Source of the DNA: Kiritimatiellia bacterium
GTDB lineage: Bacteria; Verrucomicrobiota; Kiritimatiellia; RFP12; UBA1067
Length of the DNA: 46,616 nt
Assembly (NCBI GenBank): GCA_016284515.1
Contig: JAEEOY010000023.1
Span: 1-46,616 of the forward strand
Reading direction: 5' to 3'
Shown here: one piece after another, positions 4,063 to 8,966 of the stretch
How positions within the stretch are numbered: the stretch's first letter is position 1
Layout of the letters: each line of letters begins with the position of its first letter
Notes under the pieces: generated by a model
Told to the model about the DNA's origin: nothing
Databases searched by the model: none
The model's input: only the letters and a program-made list of their open reading frames with translations
Position numbers and translations under genes: made by a program

Positions 4063-4764
4063 ATGATCAAGATAATCCAAGGCGACATAACGACGCTGGC
4101 GGTGGATGCCATCGTCAATGCGGCGAACCAGGTGATGCTTGGTGGAGGCGGTGTTGACGGCGCGATCCACCGCGCCGCCGGGCCGGAGCTTTACAAGGCG
4201 TGCCTCAGGGTGCCGGAGGTGAGTCCGGGCGTTCGCTGCCCGACGGGCGAGGCGCGCATCACGCCGGGCTTCAGGCTGCCCGCGAAGTACGTCATCCACA
4301 CCGTCGGTCCAGTCTATCGCGACGGTCTTCACGGAGAACCAGAAAAGCTCGCGGCTTGCTACCGCAACTCGCTCGCCCTTGCATCGGAGAACGGCTGCAA
4401 GTCCATCGCCTTCCCCTGTATCTCGACAGGCGTCTACGGCTATCCGATTGAAGATGCCGCGAAGATTGCAGTGCGGGAGGTGAGGGATTATCTCACGCAG
4501 AGTTGCAGAGAGGCGGAGGTCGCAGAGGAGGAATCTGGTAGGTATCCCCCAGCCGGAGGCTGTCCGCGAAGCGGATGCCCTAGCAGGGGTGCGCGATCAC
4601 CGGTATCACCTGAACGCAGTGAGCCGCGTAAGCGGTCGCTAGAGGTGTGCGCGCCGCCGCAAGACAGGGGGGCGGTCGCTCCGCGACCGCCTATTGAAGT
4701 GATCTTCTGCTGCTTCTCGGAACGGGATGCGTCGGTGTATAAGCGGCTTCTGAATATGATATAA
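4063..4764 (+). CDS. Macrodomain (ADP-ribose-binding) protein with an in-frame repeat insertion
   Basis: Macrodomain of the YmdB/MacroD type: GDIT near residue 7, NAAN at 19-22, [10 protein letters not shown] at 27-36 and the phosphate loop STGVYGYP at 121-128. Such proteins bind ADP-ribose and usually remove mono-ADP-ribose or O-acetyl-ADP-ribose. The fold is interrupted after the last helix (VRDYLTQ). Residues ~147-210 are low-complexity, Pro/Arg/Ser-rich sequence encoded by hairpin repeats, before the final strand and helix resume ([20 protein letters not shown]). Without the insert the protein would be ~169 residues, the normal size. The insert falls on a surface loop, so activity may survive. 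AAGGA lies before ATG. Confidence 0.9.
4501..4692 (+). repeat. 192-bp hairpin-rich insertion inside the macrodomain gene
   Basis: A chain of small perfect hairpins: CAGCC/GGCTG (4550-4562, loop GGA), TCCGC/GCGGA (4563-4575, loop GAA), CCCT/AGGG (4578-4588), CCGC/GCGG (4624-4635, loop GTAA) and a final REP hairpin (4671-4691). It begins with GCAGAG-type short units. Its length is a multiple of three and it has no stop in the host frame. The boundaries are inferred from where macrodomain-like sequence stops and resumes. Confidence 0.7.
4671..4691. repeat. REP hairpin copy A (core CGC-TCC-GCG)
   Basis: Perfect 9-bp arms GGCGGTCGC/GCGACCGCC around loop TCC, preceded by a G-run. It has the same core and loop as the two copies at 46213-46245 and 46288-46320. 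Confidence 0.75.
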
Positions 4765-4765
4765 T
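4757..4765 (+). promoter_or_regulatory. Extended -10 promoter overlapping the macrodomain stop codon
   Basis: TGATATAAT; the TAA at 4762-4764 is also the stop of the macrodomain gene. The predicted transcript begins near 4772 and reads through the structured leader into the helicase gene. Confidence 0.7.
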
Positions 4766-4771
4766 ATCTCC

Positions 4772-4975
4772 GTCGGCCTGAAGGTATAGGGGTTCAATAA
4801 ACCCAGTAGGGCGGCCATCGGAAATGATGCTGATTTACCTGCAGTGAGGAGAGTCCTGGAGCCAAGGCGTCGAAGGGGCGAATCTGCAGGGCCGTAGGGC
4901 AGCCGAGGCAGGGGCAATTCAACCAGCGGGGAGGAACCGCGAGGGGTTACTGCTGGATTATCTTGAATTGTCACT
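4772..4975 (+). ncRNA. Structured RNA leader of unknown family upstream of the helicase
   Basis: The segment between the promoter and the helicase start has several nested perfect helices. Hairpin GGGTT/AACCC lies at 4790-4804. Helix 4811-4815 with 4891-4895 (one G-U pair) encloses helix CCTGCAG/CTGCAGG (4838-4844 with 4884-4890). A long 3' rod has CAATTCAA/TTGAATTG (4915-4922 with 4963-4970), CCAGC/GCTGG (4923-4927 with 4952-4956) and AACC/GGTT (4935-4938 with 4945-4948). There is no ORF and no poly-U end. It could be an independent small RNA or a cis-regulatory leader. I cannot assign a known family with confidence; its size and multi-helix form make the raiA motif one model to test. Confidence 0.65.
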
Positions 4976-4987
4976 TGAGGTTGTTGT

Positions 4988-7906
4988 ATGGGCATGAAAC
5001 TTACCGATGAGCAGCGGCTGGTTGTCGAGATTGACGCGGGGAGTCATCTTGTGCTTGCGCCGCCCGGATCGGGGAAGACCGAGATTCTGTCGCAGCGAAT
5101 TCTTTACGCCATGCGCACGGGCGTAAACCCGGAGCGCATGCTCTGCGCGACGTTCACTAACCGCGCGGCGTACGAGATGCGCGCGCGCGTGGAGGCGCAG
5201 GGCGCTGGCATCGCACTGCCCGAGGTGGGGAATCTCCACCATTTCTGCTTCCGCTTTCTTCGCTCGGTCGGCAGGCTCTCTCCCGCGAAGCATGTTCTGG
5301 ACGACTGCGAGCAGCTTTCGTTCGCGAAGGAGGTCGTCGATGTGCTGAGGGCGGAGCTGAAGATCGGGAAGCAGTGCGGGAAGGAAACGCGCGGCGTGAC
5401 GGTGCTGCGTTCCGTCAAAGGCGTGGTAAAGGAGCCGTCGGGGCCAATCAACGAGCTTCGCGTCGCGCATCTCCACGGGCTTCTCGAGGAATACTTCGCG
5501 AGCTGCGCGGAGAAGGACCGCTCTCCCTATCCCGCCATACTCTCCGCGATGCTGATAGCGCATCAGCGCAGGATGGGGATTCCGTTGCGCTACCTCCGGG
5601 CGATGCCTCCCGAGCTCTACGAGCTTGACGGCGAAGGCGTGGTGCGTGCGCTTTCCGGATGCTACGCCGCGCTCAAGCGCAGGTTCTGCAGCGTTGACTT
5701 CGACGACCTGATCAACGAAGCCTATCTTTATCTGGAGAAATCGCCACTGCCCGATGAGCGCAGGTTCCGCTGGGTGATGATCGACGAGGTGCAGGATCTG
5801 AATCCGCTCCAGTGGCAGATTGTGCGCGGCTTGACTTCGAAGGAGGCTGTGAGCGTCTACTTCGGCGACGCCGAGCAGGCGATATTCTCGTTCCTCGGCG
5901 CGTCGGAGGAGAGCTTCGCTTCCGCAGTGCGCGGCTGCGAGCGACACTTCTTCAGGAGGAATTTCCGCGCGACGCCTCATCTTCTGGAGATACTGATGCG
6001 GTATTCGCTCGACGCCCTGCGCTCCGAGTGGGAGTTTCTTCCTCATCCCGCTGATGCGCATCAGGCAAACGGAGTCGTTGGCGCCTGCAAGTCGACGTCG
6101 GGCGCGGAAGTCATGCAGCATGTGCGCTGGCTCGTCGATTCAGGGACGGCGTCGAACGTGGCGATTCTCGTGAGGCGCAACATTGAGGCCGATGCGCTCG
6201 AGGCGAAGGTGCGCGAACTCGGGTTCCGCTATTCGAAGGTCTCGGGGATCGACCTCTTCTCGCTTGCCGCCATGCGCGATTTCCTGGCATACGTCTCCGT
6301 CGTCGTCGGGACGGCGTCCCGTACTGACTGGGCGCGGCTGCTGCGCCGCTTTGCCCTCGGCGTGCATTCGCACAGCGCGGCGAGGTATCTTGTGCGGGGG
6401 ATGTTCGCGGCGGGGTATGATCCGGCGAAACTGTGGGACGACCCTAATCGCATTCCGCTTCTGCCCAATCCCCGCAGCCGCCGCATGATGTGGGCATGGC
6501 GAAACCGCAGGAAGCTGACGTCGTTTCGCGACGTTCTGAAGGATGCGATCTCGGAAGGCCGGAAGTGCCTGTGCGGGAATTCGACGGTCCGCGCGCTCTT
6601 CGAGATATTTGCGGACGCTGCATTCGGCGTGGCGGGGAGGTATTCCCTGCGCGAGCTGTGGCCGGAGGCGGGAAGGTGGCGCGACGAGCTGGACCCGGCG
6701 GCGCGAAAGGCGGCGGAAGCCCATTCGCGCGAGAGGATCGGGAAGTTCCTGCGGTATGTCGAATTCGCCTGCGGCGGGAAGGGCAGGAGCCTCGGCGAGG
6801 TGCTTGCGGAAGAGTGGGGCCGGCTGCGGCAGCTCAAGGAGGCGGATCTTCTCGTCGGCGACGAGAAGGTCGTACTGTCTACGATCCACAAGGCGAAGGG
6901 GCGTCAGTTCGACGCCGTGGTGATTCCCGACGTGTCGGATGTGCTGGATTGCGCAGGTGGGTCGTCCGGCGAGGCAGATCGCCTGCTGTATGTCGCCATG
7001 AGCAGGGCGAAGCGTCACCTGATGCTCTTCGGCTGTCCCGACACGCCCGTTTTCAGCCGCCTTGGGCCTTGCTTCGAAAAGGGGTACGTCAACTACTATC
7101 TGCGGAAGGCGACGGGAAGCGTTGCAAAAGGTGACTGGTTGGCGGAATGGGAAAGGCTCGCAGAATTGAACGAGGCGGGGCGCTGCGACGGCGAGTTGGC
7201 TTCGAAGGCTGTCGAATCGGGAAATGGACCAATCGTGCGAATGGCTTTGAAGGTCATGCGGCATGATCTGGACCGCGCATCTCTGCGGCGAAGATATCTT
7301 GAGATGGCGCGATCGCTTGCGGTGCCGTTCGATTGCCTTGAGACGCTTGTCGACTGCCTGTCTGATTGCTTTGGGCGCGACCTTGAGGTTCTCGGGGTGA
7401 TTCGCATGCTGGCGCGGGCGTCGGCGCGGAGCGACGTGTGCGGCGCTGCATTGCGCTATGCCTGTTCTTCGGCGGAAGAAGACTCGCTGAGGGCCGATGC
7501 AATGGCTGCCATGGGCGACGCGCTGTACTGCCGCTCGGCCGAAGTGCGCGTTGCGGCGGCGACCGCGCTCTTTGATCTTGGCGAAGGGCGCTGGGCGGGT
7601 GCCGTAAAGGGAACCGCGGGCGACTTCGAGCGGCTCGGCAGGATCGCTGCGCCGTCGCATGACGCCGCGCTGCGGGAGATCATCGCCGCGGCAGAACGCA
7701 ATGGCGACAGCGCGTATGCCAGAAAGCTGAGGCGAGTGGTGTTTCTGAGGGCGGCGCGAGTTGGATTGGCAACGCAAGCGTTGCCATCAGGACAGGGGCA
7801 AGCGTTGCCATCAGGACAGGGGCAAGCGTTGCCATCAGGACAGGGGCAAGCGCTGTCGTCGGGGCGGGGGCTGGCGCTGCCGTCGGGGCAGGGGCAGCGC
7901 TGGTAG
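4988..7906 (+). CDS. UvrD/Rep-family helicase with C-terminal helical-repeat extension
   Basis: A 972-residue superfamily 1A helicase. Walker A is APPGSGKT (residues 24-31); motif II is VMIDEVQDLNP; motif III region is YFGDAEQAIFSFLGA; later motifs are STIHKAKGRQFDAVVIPDV and LLYVAMSRAKRHLMLFG. It is expected to unwind DNA 3' to 5' in repair or restart. After the helicase core (~residue 700) comes about 230 residues of alanine-rich helical repeats, HEAT-like (AEVRVAAATALFDLG), not usual in UvrD. The last ~45 residues are tandem QALPSGQG units encoded by REP repeats. TTGAGG is a weak ribosome site seven bases before ATG 4988; ATG 4994 is an alternative. It is preceded by a structured leader. 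Confidence 0.88.
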   Translation: MGMKLTDEQRLVVEIDAGSHLVLAPPGSGKTEILSQRILYAMRTGVNPERMLCATFTNRAAYEMRARVEAQGAGIALPEVGNLHHFCFRFLRSVGRLSPAKHVLDDCEQLSFAKEVVDVLRAELKIGKQCGKETRGVTVLRSVKGVVKEPSGPINELRVAHLHGLLEEYFASCAEKDRSPYPAILSAMLIAHQRRMGIPLRYLRAMPPELYELDGEGVVRALSGCYAALKRRFCSVDFDDLINEAYLYLEKSPLPDERRFRWVMIDEVQDLNPLQWQIVRGLTSKEAVSVYFGDAEQAIFSFLGASEESFASAVRGCERHFFRRNFRATPHLLEILMRYSLDALRSEWEFLPHPADAHQANGVVGACKSTSGAEVMQHVRWLVDSGTASNVAILVRRNIEADALEAKVRELGFRYSKVSGIDLFSLAAMRDFLAYVSVVVGTASRTDWARLLRRFALGVHSHSAARYLVRGMFAAGYDPAKLWDDPNRIPLLPNPRSRRMMWAWRNRRKLTSFRDVLKDAISEGRKCLCGNSTVRALFEIFADAAFGVAGRYSLRELWPEAGRWRDELDPAARKAAEAHSRERIGKFLRYVEFACGGKGRSLGEVLAEEWGRLRQLKEADLLVGDEKVVLSTIHKAKGRQFDAVVIPDVSDVLDCAGGSSGEADRLLYVAMSRAKRHLMLFGCPDTPVFSRLGPCFEKGYVNYYLRKATGSVAKGDWLAEWERLAELNEAGRCDGELASKAVESGNGPIVRMALKVMRHDLDRASLRRRYLEMARSLAVPFDCLETLVDCLSDCFGRDLEVLGVIRMLARASARSDVCGAALRYACSSAEEDSLRADAMAAMGDALYCRSAEVRVAAATALFDLGEGRWAGAVKGTAGDFERLGRIAAPSHDAALREIIAAAERNGDSAYARKLRRVVFLRAARVGLATQALPSGQGQALPSGQGQALPSGQGQALSSGRGLALPSGQGQRW
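7768..7906 (+). repeat. REP palindrome plus 24-bp tandem repeat array, translated as helicase tail
   Basis: It starts with a perfect palindrome, GGCAACGC-AA-GCGTTGCC (7768-7785). Five 24-bp units follow (7774-7797, 7798-7821, 7822-7845, 7846-7869, 7870-7893); the first three are identical and the last two diverged. A partial unit then contains the stop codon. Because 24 is a multiple of three, the array is read as repeated QALPSGQG. Confidence 0.9.
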
Positions 7907-7940
7907 TTGGAATTGTGATGAAAAGAGAAAGGTGTTGATC

Positions 7941-8966
7941 ATGAGGTTGAGAGAAAAGAAGGAGATTCGCAGGTACAGGCGGTTTAACGGGTATGACTAC
8001 ACCCGGGGAGCGGCGCTGTTCATTACGATCGTTACAAACCCTCGGCGGCGGCTGTTCGGGGAAATCGTCGACGCCCGGCTTCGGAGAACTGCGCTGGGGC
8101 TTGCCGTCGAAAGCAGGTTGGCCGAGATGGCGCAGATGCCCGGCGTCTGCCTCTTCAACTTCGTTGTCATGCCTGACCATGTCCATCTGCAGCTCCATCT
8201 CCGCGCGGGGCTGCAGGATCCGCTTGTTGTGCTAGGGCGGGCGATAGGCGCGTTCAAGAGCCTCTGCGCGAAGGACTTCCACGAGCTGACGGGCGAGAGT
8301 GGCCCGCTCTGGCAGCAGGGCTACCACGACTGGATATGCGTGTCGGAGAAAATGATAGCCGCGGTCAACCGCTATATCGACTACAATCCGCTGAAGTTCG
8401 AGCTGCGCTACAACCAGCCCGAGTTCCTTGCGATTCGCGAGCCGATAGCGGCATGGCGGCTTCCGTCCGAAGAATTCTGGCGCGGCATAGGCGCGGTCGA
8501 TCTCCTTGACGGAGACGCGCCTTTCCTCGCGCTGCGCATAAGCCGCAGACTCTCTTCGCGGCAGATCGCCGAGGCGGTCTCGCACATTCGCCGCCGCGTC
8601 GGCGACTATGTCTTCGTCGGCGGGTGGATAAGCCCGGGCGAGAAGGCGGTGCGCGACATGCTGCTTGCAGAGCCGCGGGGGAGGATCGTGCAGATACTGC
8701 CCTCGGCGATGCCGCACGACTACAGGGTGGGCAGCATGTGGCTCGAGGCGGTGCGCGACCGACGCGCGGCGATCATCGCGCGCGGCAACAGCGAGGTCGA
8801 GTTCTCCCGCGCGGCGTGTCTGGAGGTCAACGAGGTGGCGGCGGAATTGGCAGCGCAAGCGCTGCCATCAGGACAGGGGCTGGCGCTGCCATCGGAGCGG
8901 GGGCTGGCGGCGGCTTGCGGCAAGGCGGTGTACTGGCTGCCGGAGGGGCCGAGGCTTGTTTCTTGA
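7941..8966 (+). CDS. REP-associated tyrosine transposase (RAYT, IS200-like Y1)
   Basis: A 341-residue protein. The HUH motif is H80-V-H82 in VVMPDHVHLQLHL. The catalytic tyrosine is most likely Y128 in LWQQGYHDW, followed by the family-typical NRYIDYNPLKFEL. RAYTs nick single-stranded REP hairpins and are held to spread them. It is longer than most RAYTs (~150-250 aa): residues ~165-300 form an extra C-terminal domain (RISRRLSSRQIAEAVSHIRRR, perhaps helix-turn-helix-like). The extreme C-terminus carries translated REP units (AAQALPSGQG). GAAAGG lies before ATG 7941; the open frame further upstream only overlaps the helicase tail. Confidence 0.88.
   Translation: MRLREKKEIRRYRRFNGYDYTRGAALFITIVTNPRRRLFGEIVDARLRRTALGLAVESRLAEMAQMPGVCLFNFVVMPDHVHLQLHLRAGLQDPLVVLGRAIGAFKSLCAKDFHELTGESGPLWQQGYHDWICVSEKMIAAVNRYIDYNPLKFELRYNQPEFLAIREPIAAWRLPSEEFWRGIGAVDLLDGDAPFLALRISRRLSSRQIAEAVSHIRRRVGDYVFVGGWISPGEKAVRDMLLAEPRGRIVQILPSAMPHDYRVGSMWLEAVRDRRAAIIARGNSEVEFSRAACLEVNEVAAELAAQALPSGQGLALPSERGLAAACGKAVYWLPEGPRLVS
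8849..8902 (+). repeat. REP copy inside the RAYT gene
   Basis: Perfect palindrome GGCAGCGC-AA-GCGCTGCC (8849-8866), then two 24-bp units (8855-8878 and 8879-8902) of the same type as at 7774-7893. Relative to 7768-7785 the arms differ at one position each, A/T changed to G/C on both sides, so the stem is kept. Confidence 0.88.

What the first reader, a model, noticed from the sequence alone, without database searches (positions are those of the whole stretch)
4772..4975. Unassigned structured RNA between a promoter and a UvrD-family helicase
About 200 nt with at least six perfect helices in a nested, pseudoknot-free layout: a hairpin, a two-helix stacked domain closed by 4811-4815/4891-4895, and a long three-segment 3' rod. 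It starts at a clear promoter and has no ORF. Perfect 7- and 8-bp helices (CCTGCAG, CAATTCAA) in nested order are unlikely by chance. It could be a riboswitch, a small RNA or a helicase-linked regulatory leader.
Basis: partly seen in the sequence, partly recalled or inferred. Interest (0 to 1): 0.78.

Follow-up and report, generated by a model that had tools for sequence, protein, structure and literature searches.

The report
RNA leader before candidate defence genes
A folded stretch of RNA at the front of a helicase message in an uncultured bacterium recurs at the front of other, unrelated genes, many of them resembling candidate anti-phage genes, and its shape suggests that it can hide the ribosome's landing site.

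Summary
Window 4772-4955 is a real structured RNA. Fifteen places (type A; one partial) lie in 10 of 114 genomes of the same bacterial family, three of them in this genome. On 11 distinct rows the fold shows compensatory changes (98.4% of pair cells paired; covariation 0.252 against 0.160 shuffled, 0 of 500) and is specific to the + strand. No Rfam family matches.

It is not a helicase-specific leader. The conserved part ends 30-33 nt before the start codon of different genes: ORF6N, RhuM and DUF1016/YhcG proteins (those scanned match PADLOC "phage defence candidates"), a UvrD helicase, or an unknown protein. A distant type B precedes RNA ligases. A ~330-nt type C, found in 22 of 114 genomes and linked to A only through B, precedes ORF6N, RhuM, DUF1016 or transposase genes where read.

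Best reading: a cis-acting leader that controls translation by burying the Shine-Dalgarno. In the window, 4892-4922 is predicted to pair with 4963-4991, covering Shine-Dalgarno and AUG. In type C a conserved CCUAUUCC pairs with the Shine-Dalgarno, and one copy has a compensated change on both sides. In most other type A copies the partner varies, without covariation support. The trigger is unknown; nothing is shown experimentally.

The parts
4757..4765 (+). extended -10 promoter element TGATATAAT; homology with copies at other sites begins about here
   Evidence: Sequence; same pattern in 12 of 15 copies; homology with G100 starts at -200 from the RNA end. No -35 by scan.
4772..4955 (+). conserved structured leader RNA, type A
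   Evidence: 15 places in 10 genomes, one of them partial; covariation; + strand specificity. The 5' end is inferred from the -10 box.
4776..4785 (+). P1 hairpin GCC-UGAA-GGU; NNC-YGAA-GNN in relatives with pair changes
   Evidence: RNAalifold on A1: columns 30/39 CG:8 GU:2 AU:2 GC:1; 31/38 broken in 4 of 13. The single-sequence fold pairs this region differently.
4790..4804 (+). P2 hairpin
   Evidence: Pairs changed on both sides: CG:8 GC:3 and UA:7 CG:4.
4806..4816 (+). 5' strand of the closing helix (GUAG, GGCC)
   Evidence: Pairs with 4945-4953; one-sided changes only; type B keeps it as GUAG/AGUU by my reading.
4838..4890 (+). P4 arm (CCUGCAG/CUGCAGG) with inner helix 4853-4856/4876-4879
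   Evidence: Helices 5 and 6: 2 and 3 pairs changed on both sides; outermost counted pair unpaired in 4 of 11 rows.
4891..4900 (+). P5 hairpin GCC-GUAG-GGC
   Evidence: Invariant in A3, so no covariation; a ~70-nt hairpin-rich insert sits at this loop in G046 (L013).
4902..4915 (+). P6 hairpin GCC-GAGGCAG-GGC, the state that would leave the ribosome site free
   Evidence: Middle pair CG:5 GC:4 AU:2. Its strands are also used in the alternative pairing below.
4923..4953 (+). P7 hairpin and 3' strand of the closing helix, GGGGUUACUGCU
   Evidence: P7 pairs invariant; partly exclusive of the single-sequence fold.
4892..4922 (+). 5' arm of the occluding rod: CCGUA, GGCAGCC, CAGG, GGCAAUUCAA
   Evidence: Predicted to pair with 4963-4991; probabilities 0.85 to 1 at the paired positions from -20 to -3.
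4963..4991 (+). 3' arm of the occluding rod, with the Shine-Dalgarno (UUGAGG, 4975-4980) and AUG 4988-4990
   Evidence: opening the Shine-Dalgarno costs 7.5 kcal/mol with the own leader, mean 3.4 with 18 other leaders, own ranks 2 of 19.
4988..7906 (+). gene behind the leader: UvrD-family helicase, 972 aa (a second in-frame ATG at 4994 matches the start of relatives)
   Evidence: Pfam UvrD-helicase 1.2e-41; PADLOC RTasHel 6.3e-51, GajB 6.8e-38; present in 10 of 114 family genomes.

Best explanation
The element is a cis-acting 5' leader RNA with its own extended -10 promoter. It folds into a branched domain (P1 and P2 hairpins, a closing helix, then P4, P5, P6, P7). The segment around P5 and P6 can instead pair with the ribosome-binding site of the gene behind it. 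When that pairing forms, the Shine-Dalgarno is buried (in the window the AUG too) and translation is low; when P5 and P6 form as local hairpins the site is free. Shown by computation: the conserved fold, the promoter element in 12 of 15 copies, the fixed distance to the start, the recurrence before unrelated genes, and in types B and C a strong predicted pairing between leader and Shine-Dalgarno. Inferred: that the two states interconvert, that translation is what is controlled, and that a trigger (ligand, protein, nascent translation or infection) decides. The leader with the first codons behaves as a portable module that has come to stand before several families of candidate phage-defence genes.
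For: Covariation and strand specificity. 15 type A places, extended -10 in 12, start codon at 30-33 nt in 13. Genes behind them: 7 ORF6N, 2 RhuM, 1 DUF1016, 2 UvrD, 3 of one unknown family. Scanned ORF6N and RhuM proteins score as PADLOC PDC-S05, DUF1016 as PDC-S02. Window: Shine-Dalgarno region paired with probability 0.85 to 1. Type C: 19 of 24 copies with downstream sequence have at least 8 contiguous pairs (G.U allowed) at the ribosome site; L173 has CCGAUUCC against GGAAUCGG, a change on both sides; L085 and L103 keep the pairing through G.U. Chimera test: type C sites cost on average 1.46 kcal/mol to open with type A leaders (77 pairs), 4.19 with other C leaders (110), 4.57 with the B leader (11), 4.91 with their own (11); the single type B site 6.09 with its own, 1.76 with A (7) and 1.67 with C leaders (11).
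Against: No transcript, translation or ligand data. In most type A copies other than the two UvrD ones and L008 the Shine-Dalgarno partner is different or spread out; the chimera test is not specific there (own 6.31, other A 4.71, C leaders 5.36), and a P5/Shine-Dalgarno pairing that I proposed shows no covariation. The own leader ranks first for only 4 of 19 sites and 17th, 14th and 12th for L003, L103 and L161; the script's choice of the 6-nt site there was crude and in several type C copies is not centred on GGAAUAGG. In 2 of the 3 transposase copies (L174, L175) the complement lies far upstream of the ORF, and L167, L168, L183 reach 7 pairs or fewer at the site. Type C copies are close relatives, so counts are not independent; only L173 is a two-sided change. 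L010 lacks the -10 pattern. A and C are not linked by either model, and R1 scores type B (25.5-28.3 bits) hardly above two hits I take as chance (25.3, 23.2). Odds lowered from 0.60 to 0.55 on recheck, for these last two facts and because my odds summed to more than 1.
Confidence: 0.55

Rival explanations
1. A static leader: the fold only damps translation or protects the message, with no switching and no trigger.
For: Opening costs with the own leader are mostly 4 to 8 kcal/mol, which fits constant repression; a consensus fold and an occluding fold are both found, but nothing shows that they interconvert.
Against: Invariant loop positions far from the ribosome site and a mutually exclusive P6 hairpin with changed pairs are more than a simple damper needs.
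Confidence: 0.2
2. A trans-acting antisense leader like phage P1 C4 RNA: the leader is cut from the message and pairs with the start region of this and sister genes.
For: All 13 type A copies other than the two UvrD ones share AATCAG in the start region of unrelated proteins; of the 12 with a complete leader, 10 carry CTGATT; L008 can form 10 pairs by my count. ORF6N is the antirepressor domain type (recalled). Several copies per genome in G000 and G085.
Against: L002 and L012 lack the complement; the two UvrD genes lack the target. No C4 match in Rfam. The shared first codons may only mark a recombination junction.
Confidence: 0.09
3. A DNA-level element: a hairpin end or recombination site of a mobile unit, perhaps moved by Y1 (REP-associated) transposases, that happens to hold a promoter.
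For: Homology between copies at different sites starts near the -10 box and often ends just past the start codon; several copies lie at contig ends; a Y1_Tnp gene follows the window helicase and Y1_Tnp genes stand behind type C in L173 and L175.
Against: The consensus fold is much better on the transcribed strand (-46.3 against -25.8), pairs drift through G.U (53 cells) far more than A.C (4, though the structure was chosen on that strand), and the element has the same orientation to the gene in the copies read. In the other copies scanned the gene directly behind is no transposase.
Confidence: 0.12
4. A ribozyme or the RNA partner of the protein behind it (guide-like or retron-like).
For: Size, conserved loops, and linkage to nucleic-acid proteins.
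Against: The proteins are unrelated, from RhuM to RNA ligase; no reverse transcriptase or known guide nuclease among the genes scanned; no Rfam match.
Confidence: 0.04

Closest known systems
Translational riboswitch / Shine-Dalgarno-sequestering leaders
   Same: conserved folded leader upstream of a start codon, alternative pairing that buries the ribosome site
   Different: genes behind it share no metabolic theme; no ligand known; no Rfam class matches
C4 antisense RNA of P1/P7-type phages (recalled)
   Same: structured leader before an antirepressor-type gene, with complementarity to a start region in most type A copies
   Different: about 77 nt (recalled) against 190-330 nt, no Rfam match, target not present in the window copy
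PADLOC phage defence candidates PDC-S05, PDC-S02, PDC-S23
   Same: scanned downstream genes match these protein models
   Different: these are protein models; my searches found no RNA described with them
raiA motif and other large structured RNAs
   Same: size class only
   Different: cmscan against 4227 Rfam families gives no match to the leader at gathering score, and at E up to 10 only a miRNA model at E 7.1

Membership tests
Riboswitch (any known Rfam class) | matches a curated aptamer model | tested here: not met
   No family at gathering score in the window; best E 7.1, a miRNA model, at 4650-5050; none for the type C leader at E up to 10.
Riboswitch (any known Rfam class) | conserved, covarying leader fold in several species | tested here: met
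   10 genomes.
Riboswitch (any known Rfam class) | expression platform exclusive with the conserved fold | tested here: inconclusive
   Predicted clearly in the window and in types B and C; not supported by covariation in the other type A copies.
Riboswitch (any known Rfam class) | binds a ligand | not testable with these tools
   Needs in-line probing or a binding assay.
C4 antisense RNA | Rfam model match | tested here: not met
   No family matched the leaders; that C4 is among the models is recalled.
C4 antisense RNA | complementary to the start region of the linked gene | tested here: inconclusive
   CTGATT with AATCAG in 10 of 12 complete non-UvrD type A copies; not in L002, L012, the window or G100.
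raiA motif | Rfam model match | tested here: not met
   No match; presence of a raiA model in Rfam 15 is recalled, not checked.
Anti-phage defence gene (window UvrD) | protein model of a defence helicase plus its partner gene | tested here: inconclusive
   RTasHel and GajB models match, but UvrD helicases are widely alike; neighbouring genes were not scanned for partners.
Anti-phage defence gene (window UvrD) | protects against phage | not testable with these tools
   Needs plaque assays.

The most novel reading that the evidence does not exclude
A portable RNA sensor shared by unrelated defence genes: a mobile promoter-leader module that keeps solo defence genes translationally silent and opens on a signal of infection, so that any gene captured behind it becomes infection-inducible.
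Probability: 0.2. Interest if true: 0.92.

Novelty: new variant of a known kind. Interest (0 to 1): 0.65.

Why it matters
If right, one family of structured leaders sits before several unrelated families of candidate anti-phage genes. How such genes, costly when expressed, are kept quiet is an open question, and a shared RNA switch would make it directly testable with reporters. It also gives three leader types as a way to find further genes of the same regulon.

Tried and rejected
Rfam at gathering score and with lax thresholds, on the window, sister loci and type C: nothing on the leaders. The 98 lax hits are nearly all miRNA models, which I take as chance matches in repeats; the other hits in these searches were tRNAs and one miRNA model at E 7.1; two searches gave none. 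Helicase-specific leader: rejected. P5/Shine-Dalgarno pairing across type A: no covariation. Direct A-C homology by covariance models: not found either way. Phage, plasmid and viral collections: no match. Weak R1 hits in G006 and G395 I take as chance: G395 lies inside a 386-aa ORF that I read, from memory, as rlmN; G006 aligns poorly. A 38-nt BLAST match in G456 gave no R1 match. Clustering upstream regions also gave a short promoter-like box GTCAGGAC in 8 loci; not pursued. A gene in L051 that I read as a Y1 transposase has no Pfam match.

Literature: search listings showed no paper on such a leader (listings and abstract starts only; some returned none). Passages of PMC13356809 were read: PDC-S02 and PDC-S05 are counted 2715 and 3275 times in rumen genomes. 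No other paper was opened. Subscription papers are mostly not in the library.

Full report
WHAT IS THERE. On one sequence alone they are not remarkable: z -1.22 for 4772-4985, with 21 of 200 shuffles as stable. The rest comes from relatives. The genome (G000, 292 contigs) has two further copies, at 83% and 77% identity. In the 114 genomes held of the same family, BLAST finds copies in 10. A covariance model built from 12 of them (R1) finds 15 places in these 10 genomes (14 at 144 bits or more, one partial at 66) and weak hits in G035, G039, G030 and G006. In 387 genomes drawn from the phylum, R1 finds nothing outside the family except one weak hit inside a 386-aa ORF of G395. A DNA pattern in the collection of 84,980 species genomes finds 14 loci, by their titles uncultured or metagenome-assembled genomes; names such as RUG (rumen, recalled) and Goat_Omasum point to ruminant guts, and several are labelled Lentisphaerae, Kiritimatiellae or Verrucomicrobia. 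Viral, phage and plasmid collections give none.

IT IS AN RNA. On 11 distinct type A rows the 40 pairs of the structure are formed in 98.4% of cells. Eight pairs have a change on both sides, and the covariation score is 0.252 against 0.160 in shuffles, 0 of 500 reaching it. Sliding the 3' partners by 1-3 columns drops pairing to 32-46%. Because the structure was derived from these sequences, the slide control favours it. The independent check is the consensus energy: -46.3 kcal/mol on the + strand, -25.8 on the - strand, and -21.7 +/- 3.4 for 60 column shuffles. The fold is P1 (tetraloop YGAA), P2, a closing helix formed with the 3' end GGUUACUGC, and P3 to P7. P3, P5 and P7 never vary, so covariation says nothing about them. 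A ~70-nt hairpin-rich insert sits at the P5 loop of the G046 copy, which a structured RNA would tolerate.

IT IS A LEADER. TGN-TA(T/C)A(A/C)T stands just before the RNA in 12 of 15 copies; L010 lacks it, and L016 and L017 are cut by contig ends. Among copies at different sites the homology that reaches furthest begins between about -200 and -229 from the RNA end; L046 and L051 are syntenic and share more, and L006 and L055 reach about -258. The conserved part ends 30-33 nt before the start codon in the 13 copies where one search reports the start there. L009 was reported at 15 nt because of an upstream in-frame ATG, and L014 ends too soon; both have ATGCAAAATCAG at the usual place. The gene differs: UvrD helicase (window, G100), DUF1016/YhcG (L002), ORF6N with or without a PLD-like domain (7 copies), RhuM (2), and a family without Pfam match whose longest member has 454 aa (3 copies: one whole, one with a large internal deletion, one cut by the contig end). 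The proteins other than UvrD share AATCAG in their first codons, so the module includes the start. In G042 the order is leader, shortened gene, a gene that I read as a Y1 transposase but without Pfam match, UvrD; in the window the leader abuts the UvrD homologue and a Y1_Tnp gene follows. Of 10 UvrD homologues in the family, 5 (G091, G095, G081, G038, G035) have quite different upstream sequence. A copy in G085 (genus g1) lies in DNA 92-96% identical to genus g15: recent transfer, or a misbinned contig, since these are metagenome assemblies.

DEFENCE LINK. Of the proteins scanned, ORF6N and RhuM score as PADLOC PDC-S05 (RhuM also PDC-S23), DUF1016 as PDC-S02, and the window helicase resembles RTasHel and GajB; the 454-aa protein, the RNA ligase, L183 and the transposase L173 match nothing at the thresholds used. 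PADLOC calls these candidates; none is tested here. The leader is not general to them: in 12 genomes the searches list 57 ORF6N, 57 RhuM and 29 YhcG stretches. Of the 89 loci fetched from these, 8 carry type A; two more type A copies lie among those not fetched (G046:C7, G085:C64). Whether the share of defence candidates exceeds chance was not calculated.

TWO MORE LEADERS. Type B (L033, L034, L038; G035, G030, G039) scores 25.5-28.3 bits with R1 (E 2.4e-4 to 1.6e-3 per genome), hardly above the hits in G395 (25.3) and G006 (23.2) that I take as chance. The link rests on a 65-nt alignment at 77% at the corresponding place (E 2e-7 in a tiny database) and on the pattern. Type B precedes an RNA ligase twice (for L033; L034 near-identical) and once a protein with a topoisomerase zinc ribbon and a weak 23S-IVP match (L038; its ORF starts 90 nt behind the RNA). 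Clustering 86 upstream regions showed a ~330-nt leader, type C, before 13 ORF6N and RhuM loci. BLAST finds type C in 27 of 114 family genomes, 22 of them strongly (E below 1e-38; five genera). In 387 phylum genomes its model R2 finds six, all of the same family. Its consensus fold has z -6.1 on 20 shuffles, but only 6 of 95 predicted pairs have a two-sided change. Besides ORF6N and RhuM it precedes DUF1016 (L166), Y1_Tnp genes (L173, L175; L174 by likeness) and an unknown protein (L183). B and C share 22 nt at 91% at the corresponding place (E 2e-4); A and C share nothing that a model detects. One superfamily is likely for A and B, and only suggested for C.

HOW IT PROBABLY WORKS. Folding each leader with its start region, the window Shine-Dalgarno region is paired with probability 0.85-1. 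The rod is 4892-4896/4987-4991, 4898-4904/4979-4985, 4909-4912/4974-4977 and 4913-4922/4963-4972. It uses the same bases as the conserved hairpins P5 and P6, so the two states exclude each other. In type C the conserved CCUAUUCC pairs with GGAAUAGG at the Shine-Dalgarno. Of 25 distinct copies listed, 24 have downstream sequence, and 19 of these have 8 or more contiguous pairs at the ribosome site. L167, L168 and L183 have 7 or fewer there; in L174 and L175 the match lies far upstream of the ORF. In L173 the leader reads CCGAUUCC and the ribosome site GGAAUCGG: a two-sided compensatory change. In type B, UAUUCCUG pairs with CAGGAGUA, with probability 0.85-1. Exchanging leaders in silico, type C sites open easily with A leaders (1.46 kcal/mol) but not with C (4.19) or B (4.57) leaders, and the one B site opens with A or C leaders (1.76, 1.67) but not with its own (6.09). 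Type A sites in general show no such specificity (own 6.31, other A 4.71, C leaders 5.36), and the own leader ranks first for only 4 of 19 sites. A P5/Shine-Dalgarno pairing proposed for type A has no covariation. The mechanism is therefore fairly supported for C and B, well predicted for the window, and open for most other type A copies.

WHAT IS NOT KNOWN. No expression data were available. Whether the RNA senses something, acts in trans, or only damps translation cannot be told from sequence. The unrelated genes argue against a metabolite of one pathway and for a general signal, but that is inference.

NOVELTY. No Rfam family matches the leaders and my searches of open literature listed no description. 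Leaders that hide a Shine-Dalgarno are a known kind; a portable one shared by unrelated candidate defence genes is, to my knowledge, a new variant.

Noticed in passing
L091:1107-1450; 22 genomes strongly, 27 in all: A ~330-nt structured leader (type C) before ORF6N, RhuM, DUF1016 and Y1 transposase genes; two places in the window's own genome (contigs C78 and, partial, C265).
   Followed up: partly
window 7821-8963: Y1_Tnp (IS200-like) gene directly behind the helicase; in L051 a gene that reads like one, without Pfam match, lies between leader and helicase.
   Followed up: partly
window about 7765-7906 and 8870-8966: Repeated ALPSGQG-type codons at the C-terminal ends of both the helicase and the transposase ORFs, suggesting a short DNA repeat that has spread into gene ends.
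   Followed up: no
window 4063-4764: Macro-domain gene (Pfam PF01661, 9.3e-49); its stop codon overlaps the -10 box of the leader.
   Followed up: partly
L003, L011, L017: ORF6N proteins behind the leader share one C-terminal half with different N-terminal halves, as if domains are exchanged between copies.
   Followed up: no
L078, L087, L088, L095, L101, L110, L113, L122: A third shared upstream block before ORF6N and RhuM genes of genus g15: a -10-like box followed by GTCAGGAC.
   Followed up: no
L081, L164, L167, L170, L171, L172: A short cysteine-rich ORF (M-D/E-QICPKCATG...) follows the type C leader, before a RhuM (L170, L171) or ORF6N (L081) gene where read.
   Followed up: no
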